From Lachnospiraceae bacterium (lineage in GTDB: Bacteria; Bacillota; Clostridia; Lachnospirales; Lachnospiraceae), in NCBI GenBank assembly GCA_024691425.1, contig JAILNQ010000086.1, positions 1 through 43,879 on the forward strand: DNA of 43,879 nucleotides. Reading direction: 5' to 3'. This document shows, piece by piece, positions 10,638 through 39,231 of this stretch. How positions within the stretch are numbered: position 1 is the first letter of the stretch; every line of letters starts with the position of its first letter. The translations under genes and the position numbers were made by a program. Below the pieces are notes generated by a model, which did no database searches, was not told the DNA's origin, and worked only from the letters and a program-made list of their open reading frames with translations.

Positions 10638-10955
10638 TCAATTGTCTTTCATGAGTTCGAATTCCTCGTCATCAAGGTATTCATCAAAAGCATCGGCGAC
10701 CATTTCATACTCGTCGTCATCTTCGATATAGAAAAGCTCAGGCTCGACATTCGGATCATTCTCGTCTTCCCTGTATCCGTAGAACCATACTTCGCCTTCT
10801 ACAGACTGACCTTCATCATCGAGCGGAAGCAGAACTATGTAGTCCTTTTCCTTTACCGTGAGAATCGTAACGATCGCGCACTCAACTTTGCTGCCGTCGG
10901 TAAGCTCTATCTCGACGGTCATATCCTCATCATTGTTTTCTTCGGTTTTGCCCAT
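10638..10955 (-). CDS. DUF1292 family protein (YrzB type)
   Basis: A strongly acidic 105-residue protein with the DUF1292 pattern: VEIELTDGSKVECAIVTILTVKEKDYIVLLPL, then a second strand pair EGEVWFYGY and a C-terminal acidic stretch EPELFYIEDDDEYEMVADAFDEYL. Members are small, cytosolic and widespread in Firmicutes; their function is not known. The ATG has AAGGAG 8 bases upstream. It is monocistronic and convergent with the helicase gene, with no bases between the two stop codons. Confidence 0.88.
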   Translation of the reverse strand: MGKTEENNDEDMTVEIELTDGSKVECAIVTILTVKEKDYIVLLPLDDEGQSVEGEVWFYGYREDENDPNVEPELFYIEDDDEYEMVADAFDEYLDDEEFELMKDN

Positions 10956-11088: not shown

Positions 11089-12993
11089 ATGAAGAAGAAC
11101 ATCATGATCATTACGGACAGAACAGTAAAAAACCATAAACAGGGCCGGGGTTTTCCTATGGGTGCTAAAAGGACCGGAAACGGAGTGCAGTTTACAACAT
11201 GCATTCCTTTCAGGAACACTCTTGAGCTTATTATATATGATGAAAAGTGTGAACCGATGGACCGCGTCAATATGAAAGAATATGCGGCGGCTTCCGGTCT
11301 TTACTCATGCTCTGTGGAATGCGAATGGTCTGACGGGATGTCATACTGCTATGAAGCTGACGGAGTAAGAACTGCCGATCCGTTCATGAAGAATTCATGT
11401 GCAGTCCGCAGGTTCGGCGATGCCGATTCGCAGATAGATAACGCAAAACTCTATGATGACAGTTTTTCATGGGATGATGACAGATTCCCGAACAGGCCGT
11501 ACAACACCGTAATAGCATATCAGCTTCACGTTCGCGGGTTTACCGCTCATTCATCAGCAAAAGCAGGAAAGAACAGGGGAAAGTTTTCGGGGATCGTTGA
11601 CAGGATTCCGTACATGAAGGATCTGGGCATAAATCAGATCGTTCTTATGCCGTGCTATGAATTCGATGAGATAGTCCGTCCATCAGATATCCGCCGCATG
11701 GATAAGCTTGATTATAAGACGGATCCGACAAAGAAAGCGCCCACTAAGATCAATTACTGGGGATTTACGAAGGGATGCTATTACATGCCTAAAGCCGCAT
11801 ATTCTAACGGCGATCCCGTAAATGAATTCAAATCAATGGTCAAGGCGTGTCATGCTGAAAATATCGAAGTCATAATGAGATTCTATTTCCCTGACAGCTT
11901 TAACCGCACATTCATCCCGGATATTCTTAAATTCTGGGCATGCTGCTATCGCGTTGATGGTTTCTTCCTGATGGGATCGGACATTCCGATGGACATGATC
12001 GCCGCCGACATGTATCTGCGCGACAGAAAAATTTACAACAGCTTTTTTGACAAGGATTACATTACGCGTAAGAAGTACGGTTATAATGCGAACATGGCAT
12101 TTGTTAATTCGGACTTCATGAATACTTGCCGTAAGTTCTTAAAGAGCGATGAGAACCAGCTTTCTGATTTTCTCTACAGGCTGAGGCTCAATCCGACGGA
12201 TGTGCACACAGTGAATTTCATGACTGATTACTGCGGATTCACGCTCAACGATCTTGTGACGTATGATTACAAGCACAACGAAGAGAACAATGAAGACAAC
12301 AGCGACGGCGAGAATTTCAATTACAGCTGGAACTGCGGAGCGGAAGGCCCTTCACAGAAGAAGAGCGTGATCAATCTGAGGCTCAAGCAGATAAAGAATG
12401 CACTTCTTTTCCTCTTCATGGCTCAGGGAACACCTATGATCTGTGCGGGTGACGAATGCCTTAATACGCAGGGCGGAAACAATAACCCTTACTGTCAGGA
12501 CAACGAGACAGGATGGGTTGTATGGAAGCAGAATAAGCAGAACGCCGAGATCAGTGCGTTTCTCAAGACGCTCATAAAGCTCCGTACGGAGCATCCGATA
12601 CTTCATCCCGAAAGAGAATTCCGGCTTATGGATTACGCATCCTGCGGATTCCCGGATCTTTCTTATCATGCCGATATGGCATGGAATCCTAGGTATGACA
12701 ACCATCTGCGCCATATCGGCGTGATGATATGCGGTAAATACGCAAGACTGACGCGGACTAAAGAGGATGATTTTTTCTATTTCGCATATAACATGCACTG
12801 GGAAAATCATACATTCGCTCTTCCGAAGCTCCCTAAGGGACTCGAATGGTCAGTGTGCCTTCTTACATGCAATGATGCCGCCGGCGCCATCGTCTATAAG
12901 ACGCTTTGCAGCAGGGACGGAAGCGTAACGATTCCGGACCGCACGACCGCGGTCTTTATATCAAAACCGGCGGAAGAAGAAAATAACAGATAG
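11089..12993 (+). CDS. Catalytically degenerate GH13 (glycogen debranching/pullulanase-like) protein
   Basis: A 634-residue protein with the layout of GlgX-type debranching enzymes: N-terminal beta-sandwich (about 1-120), a GH13 barrel (about 140-520) and a C-terminal beta domain. Similarity is clear in GFTLNDLVTYDYKHNEENN, NFNYSWNCGAEGP and FLFMAQGTPMICAGDE. But every active-site motif is changed. In region I, VILDVVYNHT becomes VIMRFYFPD (Asp to R264, His to D269). In region II, DGFRFD becomes DGFFLM (Arg to F293, nucleophile Asp to M295). In region III, IAEPWD becomes YNSFFD (acid Glu to S318). In region IV, CHDG becomes DYCG (His to Y381, Asp to C382). I infer a non-enzymatic, perhaps glucan-binding or regulatory, protein. 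The reading frame is intact and trpS follows 16 bases later. Confidence 0.85.
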   Translation: MKKNIMIITDRTVKNHKQGRGFPMGAKRTGNGVQFTTCIPFRNTLELIIYDEKCEPMDRVNMKEYAAASGLYSCSVECEWSDGMSYCYEADGVRTADPFMKNSCAVRRFGDADSQIDNAKLYDDSFSWDDDRFPNRPYNTVIAYQLHVRGFTAHSSAKAGKNRGKFSGIVDRIPYMKDLGINQIVLMPCYEFDEIVRPSDIRRMDKLDYKTDPTKKAPTKINYWGFTKGCYYMPKAAYSNGDPVNEFKSMVKACHAENIEVIMRFYFPDSFNRTFIPDILKFWACCYRVDGFFLMGSDIPMDMIAADMYLRDRKIYNSFFDKDYITRKKYGYNANMAFVNSDFMNTCRKFLKSDENQLSDFLYRLRLNPTDVHTVNFMTDYCGFTLNDLVTYDYKHNEENNEDNSDGENFNYSWNCGAEGPSQKKSVINLRLKQIKNALLFLFMAQGTPMICAGDECLNTQGGNNNPYCQDNETGWVVWKQNKQNAEISAFLKTLIKLRTEHPILHPEREFRLMDYASCGFPDLSYHADMAWNPRYDNHLRHIGVMICGKYARLTRTKEDDFFYFAYNMHWENHTFALPKLPKGLEWSVCLLTCNDAAGAIVYKTLCSRDGSVTIPDRTTAVFISKPAEEENNR

Positions 12994-14044: not shown

Positions 14045-16159
14045 ATGCATAAGATGAGACGCAAGTTTCTTATTGCAGGAGGCATAGTCATAAATGTGCT
14101 TCTGTCCTTTATTATGGACAGGCTCGGCATGCCCTTGTTCCTTGATACTGTCGGAACTATCGGAGTTGCCGCGATAGGCGGCATGATTCCGGGCATTTTC
14201 ACTGCCGTTGCAACGAATGTGGCATGTACTCTTTTCAATGAGAGTGCGATATATTTTGCGGCAATAGATGCATTGCTTGCGATATATTCCGCATGGTTCT
14301 TCAAAAAAGTCAAGAAATGGACTGCAGGCCGCATCATATCTTTCATTCTTTCCATTTCGCTGCTTTCAGGTACGGTCAGCTCATTCATACAATGGGGACT
14401 TTTCGGCGATGCCCAGCATTCGCTTGTCACTGATACGGCCAGGTCCTTCTCGCTTGTGGCAAACCTCCCGTATTTTGCCGCTTTCCTCATAACGAATATC
14501 GTAATAAACATACTTGATAAATCTGCCGCTACAGGGATCACATTCCTGCTTCTGCGCGTAATTCCCGATGATAAGCTTGCCGGAATAGAAAAAGAAGACT
14601 GGATGCAGAAACCTCTGTCTGACGAAGAGTTAAAGTCCATGAAGGAGTGGGGCAAGGATGTAAAATACTCAGTACGGAAAAGAACTGCGCTGACACTTGT
14701 TATCACATCTCTTCTTCTCGTTATTGCGATGGGATGGATCGCTGTCCATCTATACTACAACAACGAAAAGGCTGAAAAGACCGAGGCAGCATATTCTGCT
14801 GTTAAGTTCGCGGCGAGCATGATAAATACTGACCGTATCGAGGACTATATCAATGAGGGCAGAGAAGCCTTCGGATACAACGCCACGGAGGAAATGCTGA
14901 ACAATATAAGAAAATCGGTTTCAGGCGTTGAATATCTGTATGTTCTTCGCATAGAAGAGACAGGATGCCGGTTCATTTTCGATCCGCCGGCGGAAAACAA
15001 TGAGGATCCGTACGCCCCGGGTGAATTCGTTCCCTTCGAGGCGGCATTCGAACCTTATATTCCGGCGCTCATTGCGGGCGAGGAGATAGAGCCTATTGAA
15101 TCAAACGACAGATGGGGATGGATGCAGACAGTATACTATCCGGTAAGGAATGAGAACGGAAGCTGTGTATGCTATGTTGGTGCGGATGTATCGCTCTCAT
15201 ATATGGCAGGATACACAAGGGATTTTGTGCTGAAGGTTATGCTGCTGCTTGCAGGATTCTTCATTCTTGTCATTTCATATACGATATGGACGACATCGAT
15301 CTACACATCTTATCCGATAAGCAGCATAGCATCATGCGTCGACCGTTTTGCGAACTCTGGCGATGACCAGGAAAAACTTGACGAGAATGTAAGATCGATC
15401 CGTGCGCTCGACATAAGGACGGGTGATGAGATCGAGAAGATGTACCAGGCACTGTGCAGAATGACATCGAACCAGGCCGAAAATCTCCGCGATATCAGAA
15501 GGTTGTCCGAATCTACTGCCAAAATGCAGGACGGACTTATCGTAACGATGGCGGACATGGTCGAGAGCCGTGACAGCGACACCGGCGCTCACGTACAGAA
15601 AACATCCGCATACGTAAAGATAATAGTTGAAGGTCTTAAGAAACACGGATACTACTCAGAAAAGATCACACCTAAGTTCATGTCCGATATAGTAAGGTCC
15701 GCACCTCTTCATGATGTCGGAAAGATAAACATTCCGGACGGTATTCTTAATAAACCGGGCAAGCTCGATGATAAGGAATTCGAGATAATGAAAACCCATA
15801 CGACCGCAGGAAAGAAGATCATGGAGAATGCCATAAGCACGGTCCAGGGTGAGAACTATCTGAAAGAAGCAAGGAATATGGCGGCCTATCACCATGAACG
15901 CTGGGACGGCAAAGGATATCCGGACCAACTTGCGGGTGAAGTCATTCCTCTTTCTGCCCGTATAATGTCAGTTGCCGACGTATTCGACGCCTTGACTTCG
16001 CCGCGTATATACAAACCCGCATTCCCGCTGGATAAGGCTCTTTCTATACTGAATGAAGGATCGGGAACACAGTTCGATCCGAAGTGCATAGAAGTTTTCA
16101 TGGATGCCCTTCCTGAAGTGAAAGTCATCCTCAAAAAATATAATCAGACCGTATTCTGA
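14045..16159 (+). CDS. Membrane HD-GYP domain protein with ECF-S-like and Cache-like sensor regions
   Basis: A 704-residue membrane signalling protein. Residues 5-160 are a hydrophobic multi-helix block with GMPLFLDTVGTIGVAAIGG and IPGIFTAVATN, a pattern like the substrate-binding (S) components of ECF vitamin transporters. A further helix (about 212-235) is followed by an extracellular segment (about 240-390) resembling a Cache ligand-binding domain, then another helix (395-417) and a linker. The output is an HD-GYP domain from about 495: HDVGK (H556, D557) and KGYPD (G624-P626) are intact, as are YHHERWDG and DVFDALTS, so cyclic-di-GMP hydrolysis is expected. The start ATG has GGAGGA 5 bases upstream. 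The hybrid kinase follows 14 bases later. Confidence 0.87.
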   Translation: MHKMRRKFLIAGGIVINVLLSFIMDRLGMPLFLDTVGTIGVAAIGGMIPGIFTAVATNVACTLFNESAIYFAAIDALLAIYSAWFFKKVKKWTAGRIISFILSISLLSGTVSSFIQWGLFGDAQHSLVTDTARSFSLVANLPYFAAFLITNIVINILDKSAATGITFLLLRVIPDDKLAGIEKEDWMQKPLSDEELKSMKEWGKDVKYSVRKRTALTLVITSLLLVIAMGWIAVHLYYNNEKAEKTEAAYSAVKFAASMINTDRIEDYINEGREAFGYNATEEMLNNIRKSVSGVEYLYVLRIEETGCRFIFDPPAENNEDPYAPGEFVPFEAAFEPYIPALIAGEEIEPIESNDRWGWMQTVYYPVRNENGSCVCYVGADVSLSYMAGYTRDFVLKVMLLLAGFFILVISYTIWTTSIYTSYPISSIASCVDRFANSGDDQEKLDENVRSIRALDIRTGDEIEKMYQALCRMTSNQAENLRDIRRLSESTAKMQDGLIVTMADMVESRDSDTGAHVQKTSAYVKIIVEGLKKHGYYSEKITPKFMSDIVRSAPLHDVGKINIPDGILNKPGKLDDKEFEIMKTHTTAGKKIMENAISTVQGENYLKEARNMAAYHHERWDGKGYPDQLAGEVIPLSARIMSVADVFDALTSPRIYKPAFPLDKALSILNEGSGTQFDPKCIEVFMDALPEVKVILKKYNQTVF

Positions 16160-16172
16160 AAGGTGTCATTAA

Positions 16173-19100
16173 ATGAGAAACATACGACTGATGCTTATAA
16201 GAATAATAACAGCTGTATCGATCCTGTCACTTTCGGCTCTTGCTGATGTATATGCAGATGAAGCCGAAAACAGGTCTGGCGGCGGATATGCTGCAAGCGC
16301 GCAGATCGATGGCGTAGGATATACGAGCGAGATATATGATGCAACGAACGGGCTGCCCACATCGGACGCAAATTTCATTCTCGGTGCCAGTGACGGACAT
16401 GTATGGATCGGCGGATACAGCGGGATAATAAGATATGACGGCTCTGTATTCGAAAGACTCGATACGTCCGAAGGACTCACGAGCGGCAGGGTTCTGTTCG
16501 AAGACTCAAAAGGCAGGATATGGGTCGGCACGAATGATAACGGCGCGGCCGTGATCGATGGTGAGAAGATAACCTATTTCACATATAAAGACGGTCTTCC
16601 TGCTTCATCCATACGTTCATTCGCAGAAGATTCATTGGGAAATGTCATAATCGGGACAACATCAGGGATTGTTTATGCAGACAAAGATCTGGCTATTCAG
16701 CAGATAAAAGATGAGAGAGTCGATGAAGAAACTGTTCTTAAGCTCGATTCGGACAAGGACGGAAGGATTTTCGGTCAGACGTATGACGGCGGTCTTTTTG
16801 CGATAGATGATCTTACTGTCACTGATTTTTACGAAAACGGAATTCTCGGGAATGAAAGTATTTCAACGTTCATGGCCGATCCTGACAGCGATTCAAAAAT
16901 CTATATCGGAACAGAGAGCGGAAACATTTATTACGGCCGGTTCGGATACAGAATGGACAGCATGAAGAAGCTTGACGTTGAACCGCTTGACAGAATTCAG
17001 TGGATAAGCAAGGACTGCGGAAGAATCTGGGCGGCGTCGAGTTCGCAGGCAGGATATTTCGGACTTAATGACCGGTTCTACCTTCTTTCGGGTATTACTA
17101 TGAACTCTGCTATATCGATGATGACTTCGGACTATCAGGGCAACCTCTGGTTCGCTTCTTCGACGCAGGGGGTTATGAAGGTCGTAACCAACAACTTTGT
17201 CTACATCAATGAGAAAGCGAAAATCCCTGCGGAAGTTACGAATGCGACTTGTATGTATAACGGTAAGCTCTATATCGGAACCGATAACGGTCTTTTTATT
17301 CTTGACAATAATTTCAATAGCATCGAGAACGAGCTGACAGAGTATATAGGAACGAGCAGGGTCAGATGCATCATGGGTGACAGAGCGGATAATCTGTGGA
17401 TTTCAACGTATACTAATGATCTCGGCCTTGTATGCCAGTCAAAAGACGGAAGCATAAAGTCCTATACGAAAGAAAACGGCATGCCCGGAAATGAGATCAG
17501 ATGTACAACCGAGACATCTGACGGTCTTATACTGGTAGGCTCGAATGACGGACTTGTCGTCATTAAGAACGGCAGCATCACACATGCGCTTGATGATAAG
17601 TACGGTATATTAAACCCGGTGCTTCTGACGGTTGCCGAAGGAGCTGACGGAAAAATATATGCAGGCAGCGACGGTGACGGGATTTATGTGATCGACGGAA
17701 CCGATGTTAAAAGGATCGGGAGAGACGACGGACTTACAAGTGATGTCATCCTGAGGATCGTAAAAGATGAAAAAAGGCACGTGCACTGGATCGTCACTTC
17801 GAATTCCATAGAGTATTTAAAGGATGGGAAACTGACGAATGTTTCGTCATTCCCGTACAACAATAATTATGACATATATTTCGACAGCAGCGATAATCTA
17901 TGGATTCTTTCGTCATACGGGATCTACAGAGTTAAAGCTTCGGAGATGCTGGATAATGATGTCAGGGATTACAGACTCTATACGATAGCCAACGGGCTTC
18001 CTTGCTCAGCCACATCGAATTCCTACAGCGCACTCGACAGTAACGGGAATCTGTACATATCAGGAAGAGAAGGCACAAGCCGTGTAAATATCGAAGATTA
18101 TTACAATGATGCGTCATCTATCAAGATCGATGTTGCATCGATATACTGTGATGATGAGAGAATTATTCCGGACGAGGAAGGTATCTTTACCATTCCGCCT
18201 TCTGACGGCCGTATCAAGATAAATACTTCTGTGATGGATTACACCATGTCCAATCCGATGATAAGGGTATTCCTCGAAGGAAGCGGGGATGATGGCATCA
18301 CCGTTCTTCGGAACGAGCTTTCCACTCTTGAATATACGGGACTGTCATACGGCACTTACACGCTGCATGTGCAGGTGCTCGACAATAATGAAGAAGACGC
18401 TGTTCTCGATAGGACTTTCGAGATAGTAAAGCAGCCTCGAATGACAGAACTTCTGACGGTACGTCTGCTCCTTCTTGCGCTCATGATTCTTGCAGCAGGT
18501 GTAATAGTATGGCGCGTGATGAAGTCGACAGTCATCCGCAGGCAGTATGATGAGATACGCCAGGCAAAGGATGAAGCGGAGCGTGCGAATACCGCCAAGT
18601 CGAGGTTCCTTGCGAACATGTCGCATGAGATCCGTACCCCTATCAATACGATCATGGGCATGGATGAAATGATACTGCGTGAGGATGCGAAGGATGTACC
18701 GAAGAGCTATTTCATGTCGGTCGTGAACTATGCTCTCGATATCAGGAAAGCATCGGAATCATTATTGAACCTCATAAATGACCTTCTTGACATTTCTAAG
18801 ATCGAATCGGGCAAGATGCATCTTGTCGAACAGGAATATGATGTTTCTGATATGCTGCGCTCGATCATATCAATGATACGGGTAAGGAGCACGGAAAAAG
18901 AGCTCACGTTCGAGACTGACATAGATCATGCCATCCCGGTCAGGCTTTACGGAGACTGCTCAAAAATCAAGCAGATCGTGCTGAATCTTCTTACCAATGC
19001 GGTTAAGTATACGGACAACGGCGGTTTCGTTCTTTCGGTATCATGCGAAAAAGAGGGAAAGTGCTGCCATATGAGATATTCGGTAAAGGATACCGGTATC

Positions 19101-20384
19101 GGTGTAAAGGAAGAGGATCTTGATAAACTGTTCACCGCTTATGAAAGACTTGATGAAGAGAAGAACAGCGCTATACAGGGAACGGGGCTAGGGCTTGATA
19201 TATCAAGAAGATTCGCTGAGCTTATGGGCGGTGAGCTGAAATGCGAGAGCGTATACGGGGAAGGCTCCGAATTTATTCTTTCTGCAGATCAGGAAATCGT
19301 TGATGAAACAGAGATCGGCGTATTTCTTGAACATGATGACGGACTTGCAAAAGGCCCTTATATACCTCAGTTCGTAGCTCCCGATGCGGATGTCCTTGTT
19401 GTGGATGACAACCCGATGAATCTGAATGTTATAAAGGGACTTCTTAAAGCTACGAAGATATTCGTAACAACTGCAACGAGCGGCGAGGAATGCCTCGACA
19501 AGATCCGGGGAACGCAGTTTAACGTCGTGCTTCTTGACCACATGATGCCCGGTATGGACGGCATTGAGACCTGTGAAAAGATAAGAGAGAGATATCCGGA
19601 TCTTCCGGTGTATGCCCTTACGGCAAATGCCATGGCAGGAGAAGAATTCTATATTTCAAAAGGCTTCAACGGATACCTTTCAAAGCCGATCGACAGCGTT
19701 ACTCTTGAGAAGACTATCATGAAGCATCTTCCTGAAGAAATGATGATGAAACCGATGAAGGAAGATGAGGTCGAGGATATCAGCGAAATCCCCGAGGACA
19801 TGCAGTGGATAAAGGAAACCGAAGGTATAAATGTTGATGAAGCCATCAAGAACTCAGGCGGTATTTCCAATTTCATCTATTCACTTGAGATGTTCCTTGA
19901 TACGATAGAAGATAATTCAAAAGTCATCAAGGACGCATACGATAGCGAAAATATAAGGCTCTATACGATAAAAGTACATGCACTTAAGACGTCCGCGAGG
20001 ATAGTCGGCGCCATGGCTCTTTCGCAGCTTGCCGAAAAGCTCGAAGAGGCTGGAAATCACGAAGACATGGAATTCATATACGCTAATACCGATAAGCTGC
20101 TTTCGGAATATCATGAATTTACGGAAAAACTCGAAAGACTCAAGGCCAAGGAAGAAGCGGATGATGAGGCGGGCAAAGAGCCTATAAGCGAAGAAGAGCT
20201 GGAGGATGCATATGCGGCGCTTCTTGAAACAGTGCCGCAGATGGATTATGATGCTGTAGAGATGATAATTCAGCAGGTGCAGTCATATGCGCTTCCTACG
20301 GAAGATTACGAAAAGATGAAGAAGCTCATGGCGCTTCTGAAGAAATATGAATGGGAAAAAATGGAAGAGCTGATCAGAGGATGA
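16173..20384 (+). CDS. Hybrid sensor histidine kinase with periplasmic-type beta-propeller, receiver and Hpt domains
   Basis: A 1403-residue membrane sensor. A signal peptide (residues 1-29, ending DVYA) leads to an extracellular region with many two-component regulator propeller repeats, e.g. [33 protein letters not shown] and [17 protein letters not shown], probably two propellers, then a Y_Y_Y-like domain (about 655-750). After a membrane helix (760-783) come HisKA (H818 in SHEIRTP), HATPase ([24 protein letters not shown]), a receiver (phosphoacceptor D1122 in [12 protein letters not shown] in LSKPI) and an Hpt domain (H1269 in VHALKTSAR). A helical C-terminal tail (about 1335-1403) is unassigned. 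The layout resembles Bacteroidetes hybrid systems but has no AraC output. The tandem-receiver gene follows 19 bases later and is the likely partner. Confidence 0.92.
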
Positions 20385-20403
20385 TAAGGGGAAGGAGATC
20401 TAT

Positions 20404-21162
20404 ATGACAGACAATCGCATGATCGTCATTGCCGAAAAAGAATCGTTCATTGTCCGTGTGCTCATAAAGAAAACAACTGATGCGCGCATAGGCTGTGAAT
20501 TCGTGCCTCTCGGGATAGATACAATTAATACCAAACTGGACAGCGCCAGTCTTATAACTCTTTTTCTTGAAGATAATTCCTCTGTATCTGAGAACATCAT
20601 CCATTTCCTTTCGGACAGCATGGTCGAGAAGGGACTTCAGATGATCGTCATCGGGCAGCCCGAGGCAGTAGCCGATGTAATATGCTCAGTTCCGCCGGAT
20701 ATTATCTACAAGACTTTTCCGAGGCCCGTGGACAATGATAAGTTTGCCGAAGCTGTCGCGGAATACTTCCATAAGATCGAAGCGGGAGATTTCAAGAAGA
20801 GCATACTTGTTGTTGATGACAATCCTGAGTATCTTTCTCTCGTGCGTGAGTGGCTCAAGGGAACTTATAATGTATCAATGGCAACTTCCGGACTTCAGGC
20901 TATAAAATGGCTAGGGAAGAATAAAGTCGATCTGATACTGCTTGATTATGAAATGCCGGTAACATCCGGTCCGCAGGTGCTCGAGATGCTCCGGAGCGAC
21001 AGCGAGACGTGCTCGATTCCTGTAATGTTCCTCACGGGAAGAGGAGACAAGGACAGCGTCGTATCTGTCCTTGAACTCAAACCCGAGGGATATTTTCTCA
21101 AAACTATACAGAAGGATGAGCTTCTAGAAAAGCTCCATGAATTTTTTATGATCCACAGATAG
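20404..21162 (+). CDS. Response regulator with N-terminal pseudo-receiver and C-terminal receiver, no output domain
   Basis: A 252-residue cytosolic protein. The C-terminal half (from about 133) is a complete receiver: acidic pair D138-D139 in LVVDDNPEY, phosphoacceptor D181 in LILLDYEMPV, FLTGRG and KPEGYFLK. The N-terminal half (1-125) has the alternating strands and helices expected of a receiver fold (MIVIAEKES, MIVIGQPEAV, YKTFPRPV) but no clear phosphoacceptor aspartate. There is no DNA-binding or enzymatic domain, so output is probably by protein interaction. AAGGAG precedes the ATG. It is the last gene of the signalling cluster, and a paralogue with the same two-part plan lies at 34474-35250. 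The stop is 3 bases from the opposing potD stop. Confidence 0.85.
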   Translation: MTDNRMIVIAEKESFIVRVLIKKTTDARIGCEFVPLGIDTINTKLDSASLITLFLEDNSSVSENIIHFLSDSMVEKGLQMIVIGQPEAVADVICSVPPDIIYKTFPRPVDNDKFAEAVAEYFHKIEAGDFKKSILVVDDNPEYLSLVREWLKGTYNVSMATSGLQAIKWLGKNKVDLILLDYEMPVTSGPQVLEMLRSDSETCSIPVMFLTGRGDKDSVVSVLELKPEGYFLKTIQKDELLEKLHEFFMIHR

Positions 21163-22243: not shown

Positions 22244-23029
22244 TCAGCGTCTTTCGCTGTTTTTGTATTCTGATCCTGTAAGAAGGTTCACAACTATCAG
22301 TATTATCAGAACAAGCAGGAACAGAACTGACGAAAGTGCATACATTTCAGGCTTGATACCTTTTCGGATCTCACCGTATATCAGGGTGGAGAGGGTATTT
22401 ACCCCCGCACCCTTAGTAAAATACGTGATAACGAAATCATCCATAGACATGGTAACTGCCATGAAGAATCCTGCCAGGATTCCGGGAATCAGGTCAGGGA
22501 TCATTATCCTTGTAAAAGCATATGCGCTGTTCGCGCCTAAATCCCTTGCGGCTTCGAACTGTCGGATATCCATCGTTTCGAGCTTCGGAAGGATGCACAG
22601 TATGACATAAGGTATGTTGAAAGTTATATGCGCCATGAGCACGCTCGAAAATCCAAGAGGAAGGAATCTTACGAACCAGAGCATAAGCGCGATTCCTGTA
22701 ACGATATCCGCGTTTAGCAGCGGAATGTTCGTGAAGAAAAGCATGATCTTATAATCGCGCCTCTTCATGGAGTAGATCGCAAGCGCCGCGAGCAGTCCGA
22801 TGACACTGGCAATGGCTGCCGAGAGGAAAGCAAGAGCCATTGTCGTCCCAAACGCCTTCATTATCGCGTTGCTGTGGAAAAGCGCGGTGTACCATTTCAG
22901 TGTGAAACCTGTCCATAACACCCTTGATCTTGATGCATTGAAGCTGAGCGCTATCAGAACCATTATAGGTGCATAAAGGAACAGCATTACGATACCGACA
23001 TAAGTTTTTCCGAGTATCTTTCCGATCAT
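22244..23029 (-). CDS. potC: Spermidine/putrescine ABC transporter permease PotC
   Basis: Inner-membrane permease of 261 residues with about six hydrophobic segments. The binding-protein-dependent permease signature (EAA loop) that docks on the ATPase is EAARDLGANSAYAFTRIMIPDLIPGI at about 173-198. Family landmarks are LYAPIMVLIALSFNASR near the start and MSMDDFVITYFT late in the protein, typical of PotC. The start codon overlaps the potB stop by four bases (ATGA), so the two permeases are translationally coupled. Confidence 0.94.
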   Translation of the reverse strand: MIGKILGKTYVGIVMLFLYAPIMVLIALSFNASRSRVLWTGFTLKWYTALFHSNAIMKAFGTTMALAFLSAAIASVIGLLAALAIYSMKRRDYKIMLFFTNIPLLNADIVTGIALMLWFVRFLPLGFSSVLMAHITFNIPYVILCILPKLETMDIRQFEAARDLGANSAYAFTRIMIPDLIPGILAGFFMAVTMSMDDFVITYFTKGAGVNTLSTLIYGEIRKGIKPEMYALSSVLFLLVLIILIVVNLLTGSEYKNSERR

Positions 23030-23850
23030 ATGACGAATCCTTTATCTGTTTCGGAAACGGTTCTCCCGGATATGAGAGTAGTCAGAAGTACAAATATCAT
23101 GAGCGTTACTGAAAGTCCTGATCCTAGATTCCAGTTCATGGTCACGGAGAATTCCTGCTCTATGACATTACCGAGCAGCATGATCTTGCCTCCGCCTAAA
23201 ATGTTCGCGATGACAAACTCGGTCATCGACGGCACGAATACCATTGTTATCCCGCTTCCGATGCCGGAAAGCGAAAGAGGTATGAGGATTTTCGTAAGTA
23301 CAGTGAACCTGTTAGCGCCGAGGTCCTTTGAGGCCTCGATTATATCATCCGGTATCGCGAGAACGCAGTTGAGCACCGGAAGAAGCATGTAAGGAAGATA
23401 GTCGTATACCATGCCGATTATGATCGCGGCTTCTGTATTGATAATAGATATCTTGCCGAGCCCCAGCAGGGAAAGAAAATGGTTGATCAGTCCGTTTTTT
23501 GAGATCAGCATCTGTATAGCCAGAATACGGAGTATGAAGTTCATCCACATGGGAAGTATCATTACGAAGAGAATAATTTTTTTATTCCGGATCTTTGAGG
23601 ACCTGAGTATGAGTGCTACGGGATAGGAAATGAGTATGCAAAGAATAGAACTGATGAAAGCCAGCTCTATTGAAAGAAACAGCGCCTTTCTGTGCACAGG
23701 GTCAAAAATCGCAATGAGATTGCCTGCCGTGAAAGCCCCCTGTGGAGAAGTTACGGCTTTTGCGAACACGAACAGAAGAGGAATCACAGTGAATCCGATG
23801 ATCCAGATGACATATGGAATTGAAAGCACCTGTATTTTTTTACGGTTCAT
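23026..23850 (-). CDS. potB: Spermidine/putrescine ABC transporter permease PotB
   Basis: Inner-membrane permease of 274 residues with about six hydrophobic segments; partner of PotC. It carries the docking loop [26 protein letters not shown] (about 189-214) and the PotB-type [17 protein letters not shown] stretch. Its ATG overlaps the potA stop by four bases and its stop overlaps the potC start by four bases, giving stoichiometric translation of the ATPase and both permeases. Confidence 0.94.
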
Positions 23851-36972: not shown

Positions 36973-39231
36973 ATGGATAAGAAACTGTATAAGATGATGG
37001 ACTGGGCAAGAGTAGAGCAGATCGTCTACTCTGAGGAGGATAATCCGCATGAGTACTTAGGGGCTCATTACGTTAAAGGCGGATGGATGATATCCTGTTT
37101 CATTCCCGGTGCCGATAAATGCAGCGTTATTACAGGAAAAAAGGAATATAAGATGGACATGATGGACGAGGAGGGATTTTTCTCTGTTCTTATCAGGTCC
37201 GTAACGAAATCGAAGATTTCGTACAAGTTCAAAGTCACGAAGGATAAGGATACATTCATTGCCGAGGATCCTTACAGGTTCAGATCAGCTATAGACGCGA
37301 AGACTCTGAAGGCGTTCTCTTCGGGAATATGCTATGACATCTATGAGTATCTGGGTGCGCATGTCAGGAAGACTGAAGGCATATCGGGCGTGAATTTCGC
37401 AGTCTGGGCTCCGAATGCCGTGAGGGTTTCTGTTGTAGGCGATTTCAACGGATGGGACGGAAGGTGCCACCAGATGAGAAGGCTGGGGGATTCAGGTATA
37501 TTCGAGATATTCATACCGCGCGTCCGCCAGGGAGATAATTATAAATACGAGCTCAAGCTGAAGGGCGGGATGATAAGCCTGAAAGCGGATCCATACGGAT
37601 ATTTTGCTGAGCTTCGTCCCGAGACGGCTTCGGTTGTTTTTGATATTGACACATACAGATGGAATGATGATGAATTTGTAAATAACAGGGCAGAGCTCAA
37701 CAGGAAAGACAAGCCTTTATCAATATATGAGATACATCCGGGAAGCTTCATGAAACCGGATGACGGCAGGGATTTCCTGAACTGGACTGAACTTGCGGAT
37801 GAACTCATCCCTTACGTAAAAGAGATGGGATATACCCATGTTGAACTTATGCCGGTCATGGAGCATCCTTATGATGAATCGTGGGGATATCAGGTTATCG
37901 GCATGTATGCGCCGACATCGCGTTACGGAACGCCTGAGGATTTCATGCGTTTCATGGATAAGATGCATGCGGCAGAAATAGGTGTCATTCTCGACTGGGT
38001 ACCCGCTCATTTTCCGAGAGATGCCCATGGCCTTGCGAATTTCGATGGCACATGCCTGTATGAACACCAGGATCCGAGGCGCGGATATCATCCTGACTGG
38101 GGTACGCTCTGCTTTAATTACGGCAGAAGCGAGGTTTCGAACTATCTGATCGCTAATGCGCTGTTCTGGATAAAGAAATACCATGCAGACGGACTTAGGA
38201 TGGACGCTGTCGCATCCATGCTCTATCTTGATTACGGAAGAAGAGGCGGCGAGTGGATACCGAACATATACGGCGGAAATGAAGATCTTGAGGCTTCTGA
38301 GATGCTCCGTCATCTGAATTCGATCAACCGTAAGATGAACACAGGCGCGCTCATGATAGCAGAGGAATCGACCGCATGGCCTAAGGTGACAGGAGATGTT
38401 GAGGATGACGGACTCGGCTTCGACTATAAGTGGAATATGGGCTGGATGAATGATTTTCTCGGATTCATCAGACTCGATCCGCTTTACCGCAGCGGCCATT
38501 ATCATGAGCTGACGTTCTCTATGATATATGCGTACAGCGAGAACTTCATTCTTGTTTTCTCGCATGACGAGATTGTTCACGGCAAAGCTTCCCTGCTTTC
38601 GAAGATGCCAGGGGAGCGGGATCGGAAGTTTGCCAATCTGCGACTTTCTCTCGGCTATATGTTCACTCATCCGGGCAAGAAGCTGCTGTTCATGGGCATG
38701 GACATAGGAGAGTGGGATGAATGGAGCGAAGCAAGAAGTGTACAGCATGACCTTCTCAAGTATGATGACCATATCAACATCAACAATTTCATAAAGGCCC
38801 TGACGCGTTTCTACAAGAGCACGCCCGCGCTCTATGAGCTTGATAATGATGTGGACGGTTTCGAGTGGATAAACAACATATCGGCGAACGAGACGATAAT
38901 CGTCTTCCTCAGAAAGGATAAAGCCGGAAACTGCGTGCTTATTGTATGCAACTTCGCGGACATAGACCGTAATGATTACAAGATCGGAGTTCCCTTCTCA
39001 GGAAAGTACAAAGAAATATTCTCAACGGAGGACGCGGCGTTCGGCGGAAGGGGCAACAATAACCTGCGCGTGAAGAGATCGAAGGAAGACGAATGCGACG
39101 GCAGGCAGTACTCGATCAGGATAAGTGTTCCTGCGCTTTCTGTATCGGTATTCTCGTGCACTTATTTTGAGCAGGAAAACCTCAAGTATTATCACGCTCC
39201 CGTAAGAAAGAGAAATAAGCGCAGACGTTGA
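36973..39231 (+). CDS. glgB: 1,4-alpha-glucan branching enzyme
   Basis: GH13 enzyme that introduces alpha-1,6 branches into glycogen, 752 residues. An N-terminal domain (about 1-110) and a CBM48 (about 115-215; GVNFAVWAPNAVRVSVVGDFN) precede the barrel. The catalytic acids are present: nucleophile D411 in DGLRMDAVASMLY, acid E464 in IAEESTAWP and D532 in FSHDEIVHGK; EVGVIL-type region I is GVILDWVPAHFP. A C-terminal beta domain and a basic tail RNKRRR end the protein. ACGGAG lies 6 bases before the ATG. It contrasts with the degenerate GH13 protein at 11 kb. No other glg genes are adjacent. Confidence 0.96.
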   Translation: MDKKLYKMMDWARVEQIVYSEEDNPHEYLGAHYVKGGWMISCFIPGADKCSVITGKKEYKMDMMDEEGFFSVLIRSVTKSKISYKFKVTKDKDTFIAEDPYRFRSAIDAKTLKAFSSGICYDIYEYLGAHVRKTEGISGVNFAVWAPNAVRVSVVGDFNGWDGRCHQMRRLGDSGIFEIFIPRVRQGDNYKYELKLKGGMISLKADPYGYFAELRPETASVVFDIDTYRWNDDEFVNNRAELNRKDKPLSIYEIHPGSFMKPDDGRDFLNWTELADELIPYVKEMGYTHVELMPVMEHPYDESWGYQVIGMYAPTSRYGTPEDFMRFMDKMHAAEIGVILDWVPAHFPRDAHGLANFDGTCLYEHQDPRRGYHPDWGTLCFNYGRSEVSNYLIANALFWIKKYHADGLRMDAVASMLYLDYGRRGGEWIPNIYGGNEDLEASEMLRHLNSINRKMNTGALMIAEESTAWPKVTGDVEDDGLGFDYKWNMGWMNDFLGFIRLDPLYRSGHYHELTFSMIYAYSENFILVFSHDEIVHGKASLLSKMPGERDRKFANLRLSLGYMFTHPGKKLLFMGMDIGEWDEWSEARSVQHDLLKYDDHININNFIKALTRFYKSTPALYELDNDVDGFEWINNISANETIIVFLRKDKAGNCVLIVCNFADIDRNDYKIGVPFSGKYKEIFSTEDAAFGGRGNNNLRVKRSKEDECDGRQYSIRISVPALSVSVFSCTYFEQENLKYYHAPVRKRNKRRR

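What the first reader, a model, noticed from the sequence alone, without database searches (positions are those of the whole stretch)
11089..12993. GH13 debranching-enzyme homologue with all three catalytic acids replaced
The structural core is well preserved (GFTLNDLVTYDYKHNEENN, NYSWNCGAEGP, AQGTPMICAGDE), but all four active-site regions are altered: nucleophile Asp to M295, its partner Arg to F293, acid Glu to S318, and the third Asp with its preceding His to C382 and Y381; the region I Asp and His are also lost. The frame is intact and has a near-consensus promoter, so this is a maintained pseudoenzyme, not a decaying gene. It might bind glucans or regulate other glycogen enzymes. The motif alignment is seen here; the role is inference.
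Basis: partly seen in the sequence, partly recalled or inferred. Interest (0 to 1): 0.7.

Follow-up and report, generated by a model that had tools for sequence, protein, structure and literature searches.

The report
Catalytically dead bacterial isoamylase family
A gene that looks like a glycogen-trimming enzyme has lost its cutting machinery, and so have its relatives across a large group of gut and rumen bacteria, so they probably hold or organise glycogen rather than cut it.

Summary
The 634-aa ORF at 11089-12993 is a GH13_11 (GlgX/isoamylase-like) protein with R264, D269, F293, M295, S318, Y381 and C382 at the usual active-site positions. I aligned 116 such proteins (115 besides the window's). 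None has the nucleophile Asp or the full triad. All share two deletions on the catalytic face (23-24 versus 68 residues; 17-19 versus 32). Of these, 45 were put in a tree with 24 active enzymes, motif columns left out, and one branch separates the two groups (SH-aLRT 99). dN/dS is 0.04-0.13 in 45 close pairs, so the gene is maintained. It occurs in 196 of 250 sampled genomes of the window's family (Lachnospiraceae, by relatives' names); 124 of these show no active GlgX. A class-wide sample of 245 found it only in that family. The catalytic strands have drifted, while the beta7 lobe is nearly as conserved as in active enzymes; it holds the counterpart of maize ISA1 W578, a secondary-site glucan contact. 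Best reading: an independently evolved bacterial counterpart of plant ISA2, a non-catalytic glucan-binding protein. Role, binding, partner and independence are inferred.

The parts
11089..12993 (+). Pseudo-isoamylase (GH13_11-like, catalytic residues lost) ORF, 634 aa
   Evidence: NCBIfam TIGR02100 284.3 bits, below its 640.9 cut-off; AF2 mean pLDDT 86.6, Foldseek top hits ISA1 and GlgX
11134..11373 (+). N-terminal beta-strand domain (residues about 16-95), where active enzymes have CBM48; not recognised as CBM48 in P0001
   Evidence: strands in the model; Pfam CBM_48 in 3 of 54 members, not P0001; mean pairwise identity 0.25 in the family versus 0.58 in canonical
11860..11895 (+). Degenerate region I (residues 258-269): canonical D and H replaced by R264 and D269
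11896..11946 (+). Residues 270-286, where the region I to II loop is deleted: the stretch 267-290 is 23-24 aa long in all 116 pseudo rows, 68 in 41 canonical rows
11947..11979 (+). Degenerate region II (residues 287-297): R to F293, nucleophile D to M295
11974..12027 (+). Residues 296-313, where the region II to III loop is shortened: 17-19 aa versus 32 in 41 canonical rows
12022..12054 (+). Degenerate region III (residues 312-322): acid E to S318
12208..12246 (+). Degenerate region IV (residues 374-386): HD to Y381 C382
12235..12351 (+). Conserved beta7 lobe (residues 383-421), with N397 and W414, the counterparts of maize ISA1 N561 and W578
   Evidence: mean pairwise identity 0.70 versus 0.77 in canonical; W578 described as a glucan contact in PMC12510319 section 15
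12427..12528 (+). Conserved beta8 lobe (residues 447-480), with N464, the counterpart of maize ISA1 N628
   Evidence: mean pairwise identity 0.63 versus 0.79 in canonical
12604..12969 (+). C-terminal domain (about residues 506-627)
   Evidence: Pfam Isoamylase_C in 9 of 54 and ISOA1-3_C in 7 of 54 members, neither in P0001
11044..11072 (+). Promoter-like site, 11 of 12, 17-nt spacer
   Evidence: number of such sites not above shuffles

Best explanation
The gene encodes a member of a Lachnospiraceae family of catalytically dead isoamylases that most likely arose once from an active GH13_11 enzyme. SHOWN: the nucleophile, the full triad and two catalytic-face loops are gone in all 116 aligned members; the gene is under purifying selection in the pairs tested; the predicted fold and the beta7/beta8 lobe are kept. 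INFERRED: the protein still docks on glycogen or another alpha-glucan through that lobe (the equivalent of the maize ISA1 border lobe with site SBS2), does not cut it, and works as a non-catalytic glucan-binding factor that shapes or guards the polymer or recruits other glycogen enzymes, as has been proposed for plant ISA1/ISA2 complexes. Because most carriers show no active GlgX, it probably acts alone, as a homomer, or with another partner, not only as a GlgX subunit.
For: D295 0 of 116, E318 12, D382 35, all three 0, two of them in 4 rows; loop lengths do not overlap between 116 pseudo and 41 canonical rows; pseudo and canonical split by one branch, SH-aLRT 99, with motif columns left out (45 + 24 rows); dN/dS 0.039-0.129 in the 45 most similar of 125 pairs; beta7 lobe identity 0.70 versus 0.77 canonical while beta4-beta5 is 0.33 versus 0.75; counterparts of maize R504, N561, W578, N628 kept in 116, 114, 105 and 112 of 116; Foldseek best hits ISA1 and GlgX; glgA over cut-off in 242 of 250 family genomes, so a glycogen-type polymer is likely available.
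Against: No binding data. The four lobe residues are equally conserved in active GlgX and may be kept for folding. The lobe is predicted with lower confidence (pLDDT 62-74 for 391-420, 63 for 461-470). The CBM48-like domain has diverged. The gene lies among housekeeping genes, not in a glg operon. Plant ISA2 keeps the other secondary site (SBS1) and lacks the SBS2 motif, so the parallel is not exact. Of 54 genomes first counted as lacking it, 49 have glgA over cut-off, so glycogen synthesis does not require it.
Confidence: 0.6

Rival explanations
1. Obligate ISA2-like regulatory subunit of an active GlgX: it forms a hetero-oligomer with canonical GlgX and tunes it.
For: Of 78 genomes with canonical GlgX, 72 also have the pseudo form (73 with a fragment at a contig end in G048), against 124 of 172 without; Fisher p 0.0002 for 72. 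In three cases the two genes lie within about 2 kb: L068, G126 and G133.
Against: 124 of 196 carriers show no canonical GlgX. For 80 of these 124 the search was repeated with up to 12 candidates scored per genome: 0 of 80, including the genus-mate G193 at 99% completeness; the other 44 rest, which scored at most 4. In seven further genomes whose places I compared by eye (G035, G046, G067, G079, G104, G182, G232) the genes lie over 40 kb apart or on different contigs. The association is not corrected for phylogeny or completeness.
Confidence: 0.15
2. Partner of another debrancher (type I pullulanase or GH133).
For: Many carriers lack GlgX, so another alpha-1,6 enzyme would be expected.
Against: In a hand-picked set (33 of the 124 carriers without GlgX, 32 of the 48 genomes with neither form), PulA is over cut-off in 4 of 33 and 6 of 32 (Fisher p 0.51); strong GH133 matches (PF06202, E under 1e-100) are in 1 of 33 and 3 of 32, with weak matches in ten more. 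G193 has neither; G000 has no PulA over cut-off and only a borderline PF06202 match.
Confidence: 0.05
3. A re-wired enzyme with new catalytic residues in the old cleft.
For: In 29 of 33 carriers without GlgX there is no PulA over cut-off either, so the dead form is often the only protein of isoamylase or pullulanase type found, although glgA is common. Some acids are commoner in the family than in the 42 canonical rows: D131, E355, D393, E402, D515, D523.
Against: None of these lies at the catalytic strand ends by sequence position. The catalytic positions vary freely (12 letters at 295, 16 at 318), two catalytic-face loops are deleted, and E402 is also Glu in S. venezuelae GlgX and Arabidopsis ISA1. 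Four members keep two of the three acids, but none the nucleophile.
Confidence: 0.08
4. A moonlighting protein unrelated to glucans that reuses the stable isoamylase fold.
For: Housekeeping neighbourhood: UvrD helicase near in 37, DUF1292 in 35, trpS in 33, gltX in 29 of 93 loci; no glycogen operon seen.
Against: Strong retention of the beta7/beta8 lobe, which holds a described glucan contact in ISA1.
Confidence: 0.12

Closest known systems
Plant/algal ISOAMYLASE 2 (ISA2; PDB 9xvi_C, 9j6x_C)
   Same: GH13_11 fold, catalytic residues lost throughout the family, ancient and maintained, non-catalytic (PMC12510319 section 6)
   Different: ISA2 has an extra N-terminal beta-sandwich, keeps SBS1, lacks the SBS2 motif and works bound to ISA1 (PMC12510319 sections 6 and 15). 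Here the lobe with the SBS2 Trp is kept, two catalytic-face loops are deleted, and most carriers show no active GlgX. The A1 profile scores ISA2 219.5 bits, ISA1 410.6 and S. venezuelae GlgX 359.1. Whether ISA2 has the same loop deletions was not checked.
ISOAMYLASE 1 (9xve, 9xvi_A, 9j60, 4j7r)
   Same: Closest solved relatives by profile and fold; border-lobe residues kept
   Different: ISA1 is an active debrancher with the full triad and loops
Bacterial/archaeal GlgX and TreX (7u39, 2vnc, 2wsk)
   Same: Same subfamily fold and beta7/beta8 loops
   Different: S. venezuelae GlgX uses Asp342, Glu378 and Asp450 (PMC9530166 passages); all three are replaced here. TIGR02100 gives 284.3 bits against a cut-off of 640.9
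Butyrivibrio hungatei MB2003 glgX2 (648 aa)
   Same: A second 'glycogen debranching enzyme' of similar length listed without CBM48, beside a 726-aa glgX1 with CBM48 (PMC5716241 table): probably a member of this family
   Different: Its sequence was not seen here; the identification is inference from length and domain listing

Membership tests
Active GlgX / isoamylase (GH13_11 enzyme) | Catalytic triad Asp-Glu-Asp | tested here: not met
   M295, S318, C382; 0 of 116 family rows have all three
Active GlgX / isoamylase (GH13_11 enzyme) | Region I Asp/His and region II Arg | tested here: not met
   R264, D269, F293
Active GlgX / isoamylase (GH13_11 enzyme) | Full-length loops after regions I and II | tested here: not met
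   23-24 versus 68 aa; 17-19 versus 32 aa
Active GlgX / isoamylase (GH13_11 enzyme) | NCBIfam TIGR02100 curated cut-off | tested here: not met
   284.3 versus 640.9 bits; but 28 of the 78 genomes counted as having canonical GlgX also stay under that cut-off, so the cut-off alone is not decisive
GH13_11 fold (descent, not activity) | Sequence and structural similarity to isoamylases over the whole length | tested here: met
   Foldseek E 3.4e-50, TM 0.79 by query for the best hit
Non-catalytic isoamylase (ISA2-like) | Loss of nucleophile fixed across a maintained family | tested here: met
   0 of 116; dN/dS 0.039-0.129
Non-catalytic isoamylase (ISA2-like) | Extra N-terminal beta-sandwich of plant ISA2 | tested here: not met
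   Strands of one domain only (16-95) before the barrel in the model; P0001 is 634 aa, the ISA2 chains are 800 and 870 aa
Non-catalytic isoamylase (ISA2-like) | Complex with an active isoamylase | not testable with these tools
   No complex prediction available; 124 of 196 carriers show no canonical GlgX
Non-catalytic isoamylase (ISA2-like) | Glucan binding without hydrolysis | not testable with these tools
   Only conservation of the SBS2-equivalent Trp
c-di-GMP-regulated GlgX (Streptomyces) | ExR(X)6R c-di-GMP motif | not tested
   Motif read in passages of PMC9530166; the alignment of that N-terminal stretch was not reliable

The most novel reading that the evidence does not exclude
A large family of gut and rumen bacteria uses a stand-alone, catalytically dead isoamylase as a dedicated glycogen-organising protein. 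It would be a bacterial, independently evolved equivalent of the non-catalytic function recently proposed for plant ISA1/ISA2 complexes, working in most species without any active isoamylase partner.
Probability: 0.3. Interest if true: 0.8.

Novelty: new variant of a known kind. Interest (0 to 1): 0.6.

Why it matters
Non-catalytic isoamylases are known from green plants and algae (ISA2), where a role in shaping alpha-glucan independent of activity has recently been argued. A bacterial family with the same loss would let that idea be tested in simple organisms. Practically, members are easily named 'glycogen debranching enzyme' (probably B. hungatei glgX2), so debranching ability may be over-counted in Lachnospiraceae: 124 of 250 sampled genomes carry the dead form and show no canonical GlgX. 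It also leaves open how species with glgA but no recognised GlgX, PulA or GH133 (as in G193) debranch glycogen.

Tried and rejected
Private decay of one gene copy: rejected, all 115 other aligned rows share the loss. Partner inferred from co-occurrence: GlgX is partly associated but not found in most carriers; PulA and GH133 are not associated in the set tested. Glycogen synthesis as predictor: glgA is almost universal (242 of 250). Its absence goes with absence of the pseudo gene in 5 of 8 against 49 of 242 (p 0.013), but several of those genomes are incomplete, so this is inconclusive. Operon context: housekeeping neighbours. Promoter argument: not above chance in number.

Literature, 10 searches: no paper in those listings describes this bacterial family, judged by title, start of abstract and the passages I opened. 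This covers only open-licence PMC papers and those terms. Seen: passages of PMC9530166, PMC12892837, PMC5716241 and PMC10395257; passages plus sections 15 and 6 of PMC12510319; a passage plus section 8 part 1 of PMC6344614. Fan et al. 2025 was not held and is known only through the two plant papers.

48 genomes again gave no match. Five of the six genomes set aside as canonical-only match only where one search has canonical GlgX. The sixth, G048, also has a pseudo-type C-terminal piece cut off by a contig end (184.8 bits with a pseudo profile, 100.6 with a canonical one). The count of 196 and the tests were made before that; with G048 it is 197, of which 73 also have canonical GlgX.

Full report
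WHAT IS THERE. The ORF 11089-12993 (+) is open and 634 aa long. Pfam finds only a short piece of Alpha-amylase. NCBIfam's best model is GlgX, TIGR02100, at 284.3 bits against a cut-off of 640.9. The solved relatives by sequence are S. venezuelae GlgX, plant ISA1, TreX and E. coli GlgX, with plant ISA2 lower.

IT IS A FAMILY TRAIT. One scan of public genomes gave 65 loci encoding relatives, and 250 genomes of the window's family gave more. I aligned 158 distinct rows. Rows with both D295 and R293 were called canonical (42), the rest pseudo: 116, namely the window, 62 from loci and 53 from the genome search. That rule makes '0 of 116 have D295' partly circular, but no row had D295 without R293, and two other separators agree. 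First, loop lengths do not overlap: region I to II is 23-24 aa in all 116 pseudo rows and 68 in 41 canonical rows; region II to III is 17-19 versus 32 (L103, a divergent canonical row, was left out of those figures, and its printed alignment keeps the long loops). Second, a tree of 45 pseudo and 24 canonical rows, thinned by identity and built without the motif and loop columns, splits the two by one branch with SH-aLRT 99 (quick search, unrooted, so 'one origin' assumes the root lies on the active side). Within the pseudo rows E318 occurs in 12, D382 in 35, H381 with D382 in 19, all three acids in none, and two acids in four (L067, L093, L094, L096). A few of the 116 rows are partial. Named isolates carry it too (Blautia sp. 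An249, Lactonifactor longoviformis DSM 17459, Eubacterium sp. AF22-9, Porcincola intestinalis, Lachnoanaerobaculum orale), so it is not an assembly artefact.

IT IS MAINTAINED. For the 45 most similar of 125 pseudo pairs with 66-98.5% identity, NG86 dN/dS is 0.039-0.129. These pairs are not all independent, and dS is above 1 in some.

WHERE IT OCCURS. The profile A1 (54 members) gives full-length pseudo members one long match and canonical GlgX two shorter pieces; some shortened members also come out in pieces. In a class-wide sample of 245 genomes at E 1e-30 it matched 10: pseudo members in 7, all of the window's family (the window's genome included), and canonical GlgX in 3 others. In 250 family genomes, 202 match A1; six were set aside as canonical-only. 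Canonical GlgX was taken as TIGR02100 E below 1e-99 (78 genomes, 50 of them over the curated cut-off in the rows listed, 49 in the tally). Result: pseudo 196, both 72, pseudo only 124, canonical only 6, neither 48. The repeat confirmed the 48 and five of the six, and showed a cut-off pseudo-type piece in the sixth, G048, which would make it 197 and 73. One search scored at most 4 candidates per genome; a repeat on 80 of the 124 with up to 12 scored found canonical GlgX in 0 of 80. Residues were read for the aligned rows, not for all 196. The window's own genome (84% complete) and its genus-mate G193 (99%) have the pseudo form and glgA, and no canonical GlgX or PulA over cut-off; PF06202 (GH133) is not matched in G193 and only borderline in G000.

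WHAT IS KEPT. Mean pairwise identity among pseudo rows (up to 800 random pairs) is 0.33 in beta4-beta5 (canonical 0.75) and 0.25 in the N-terminal domain (0.58), but 0.70 in the beta7 lobe 383-421 (0.77) and 0.63 in the beta8 lobe 447-480 (0.79). In maize ISA1 four missense variants (R504, N561, W578, N628) without detectable activity sit in a 'border lobe', and W578 is described as directly contacting glucan in secondary site SBS2, by overlay with the Chlamydomonas structure (PMC12510319 abstract passage and section 15). I had no maize sequence; the spacing of these four residues fits the rice ISA1 fragment at one place only, and in the Arabidopsis fragment all but the Arg, which is one residue off where that chain is one residue shorter. 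Through the alignments they correspond to R348, N397, W414 and N464 here, kept in 116, 114, 105 and 112 of 116. Active GlgX conserves them too, so this shows retention, not gain.

STRUCTURE. The model (pLDDT 86.6, pTM 0.89) matches ISA1 and GlgX best. The kept lobe has lower confidence (391-420: 62-74; 461-470: 63), as does the variable stretch around 200-220. Coordinates could not be overlaid, so whether the old channel is open is unknown.

SURROUNDINGS. Upstream lie a DUF1292 protein on the other strand and a UvrD-type helicase; a class I tRNA synthetase (W/Y type; trpS by recall) starts 16 bases downstream. Across 93 loci, ABC-F-type ATPase genes (name recalled) are near in 39, UvrD in 37, DUF1292 in 35, an unnamed 184-aa gene in 35 (mostly next downstream), trpS in 33 and gltX (name recalled) in 29; one further locus, L087, could not be indexed. 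Flanks differ in length, so these are lower bounds. A canonical GlgX gene lies within about 2 kb in L068, G126 and G133.

HOW IT PROBABLY WORKS. Shown: lost active site, trimmed catalytic face, maintained gene, kept lobe. Inferred: glucan docking through the lobe, no cutting, a structural or recruiting role in glycogen metabolism. The nearest precedent is plant ISA2, likewise a non-catalytic GH13_11 paralogue under long selection (PMC12510319 section 6). The bacterial family is not ISA2: it lacks the extra N-terminal domain, keeps the other secondary-site motif, scores ISA1 and GlgX well above ISA2, and mostly occurs without a recognised active partner. Independence from ISA2 is inferred from these points; no tree with plant sequences was made.

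PRIOR NOTICE. In the papers found, a second shorter 'glgX2' listed without CBM48 in Butyrivibrio hungatei (648 aa; PMC5716241) and two glgX homologues in Blautia obeum (PMC10395257) are counted as debranching enzymes. These are probably this family (inference; their sequences were not seen). glgX2 is listed as upregulated on pectin, log2 3.27 (PMC6344614 Table 3); that table's printed FDR values look faulty, and its locus tag differs from the genome paper's.

Noticed in passing
36973-39231 +: A second GH13 in the window: a 752-aa GlgB-type branching enzyme (GlgB_N, CBM48, Alpha-amylase_C) with the usual motifs; another GlgB-like gene lies on contig C110 (L008).
   Followed up: partly
14045-21162 +: An HD-domain protein (704 aa), a 1403-aa hybrid sensor kinase (read from its sequence, not scanned) and a response-regulator protein follow the tRNA synthetase directly; not among the commonest neighbour clusters.
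   Followed up: no
10638-10955 -: DUF1292 protein divergent from the pseudo-isoamylase; a DUF1292-type gene is near in 35 of 93 loci.
   Followed up: partly
L164, L168, L171, L172, L174, L175, L176, L179: Subgroup of shortened members (seven with frames of 568-580 aa, L174 630 aa) with only 103-105 residues between positions 196 and 340 (145 in the window protein); part of the missing stretch lies just after region III.
   Followed up: partly
G193: glgA present but no recognised GlgX, PulA or GH133 in a genome given as 99% complete: how such bacteria debranch glycogen is open.
   Followed up: partly
23026-23850 -: Permease of PotB type (name recalled, not scanned); its cluster of related proteins occurs downstream on the minus strand in 16 of 93 loci.
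   Followed up: no
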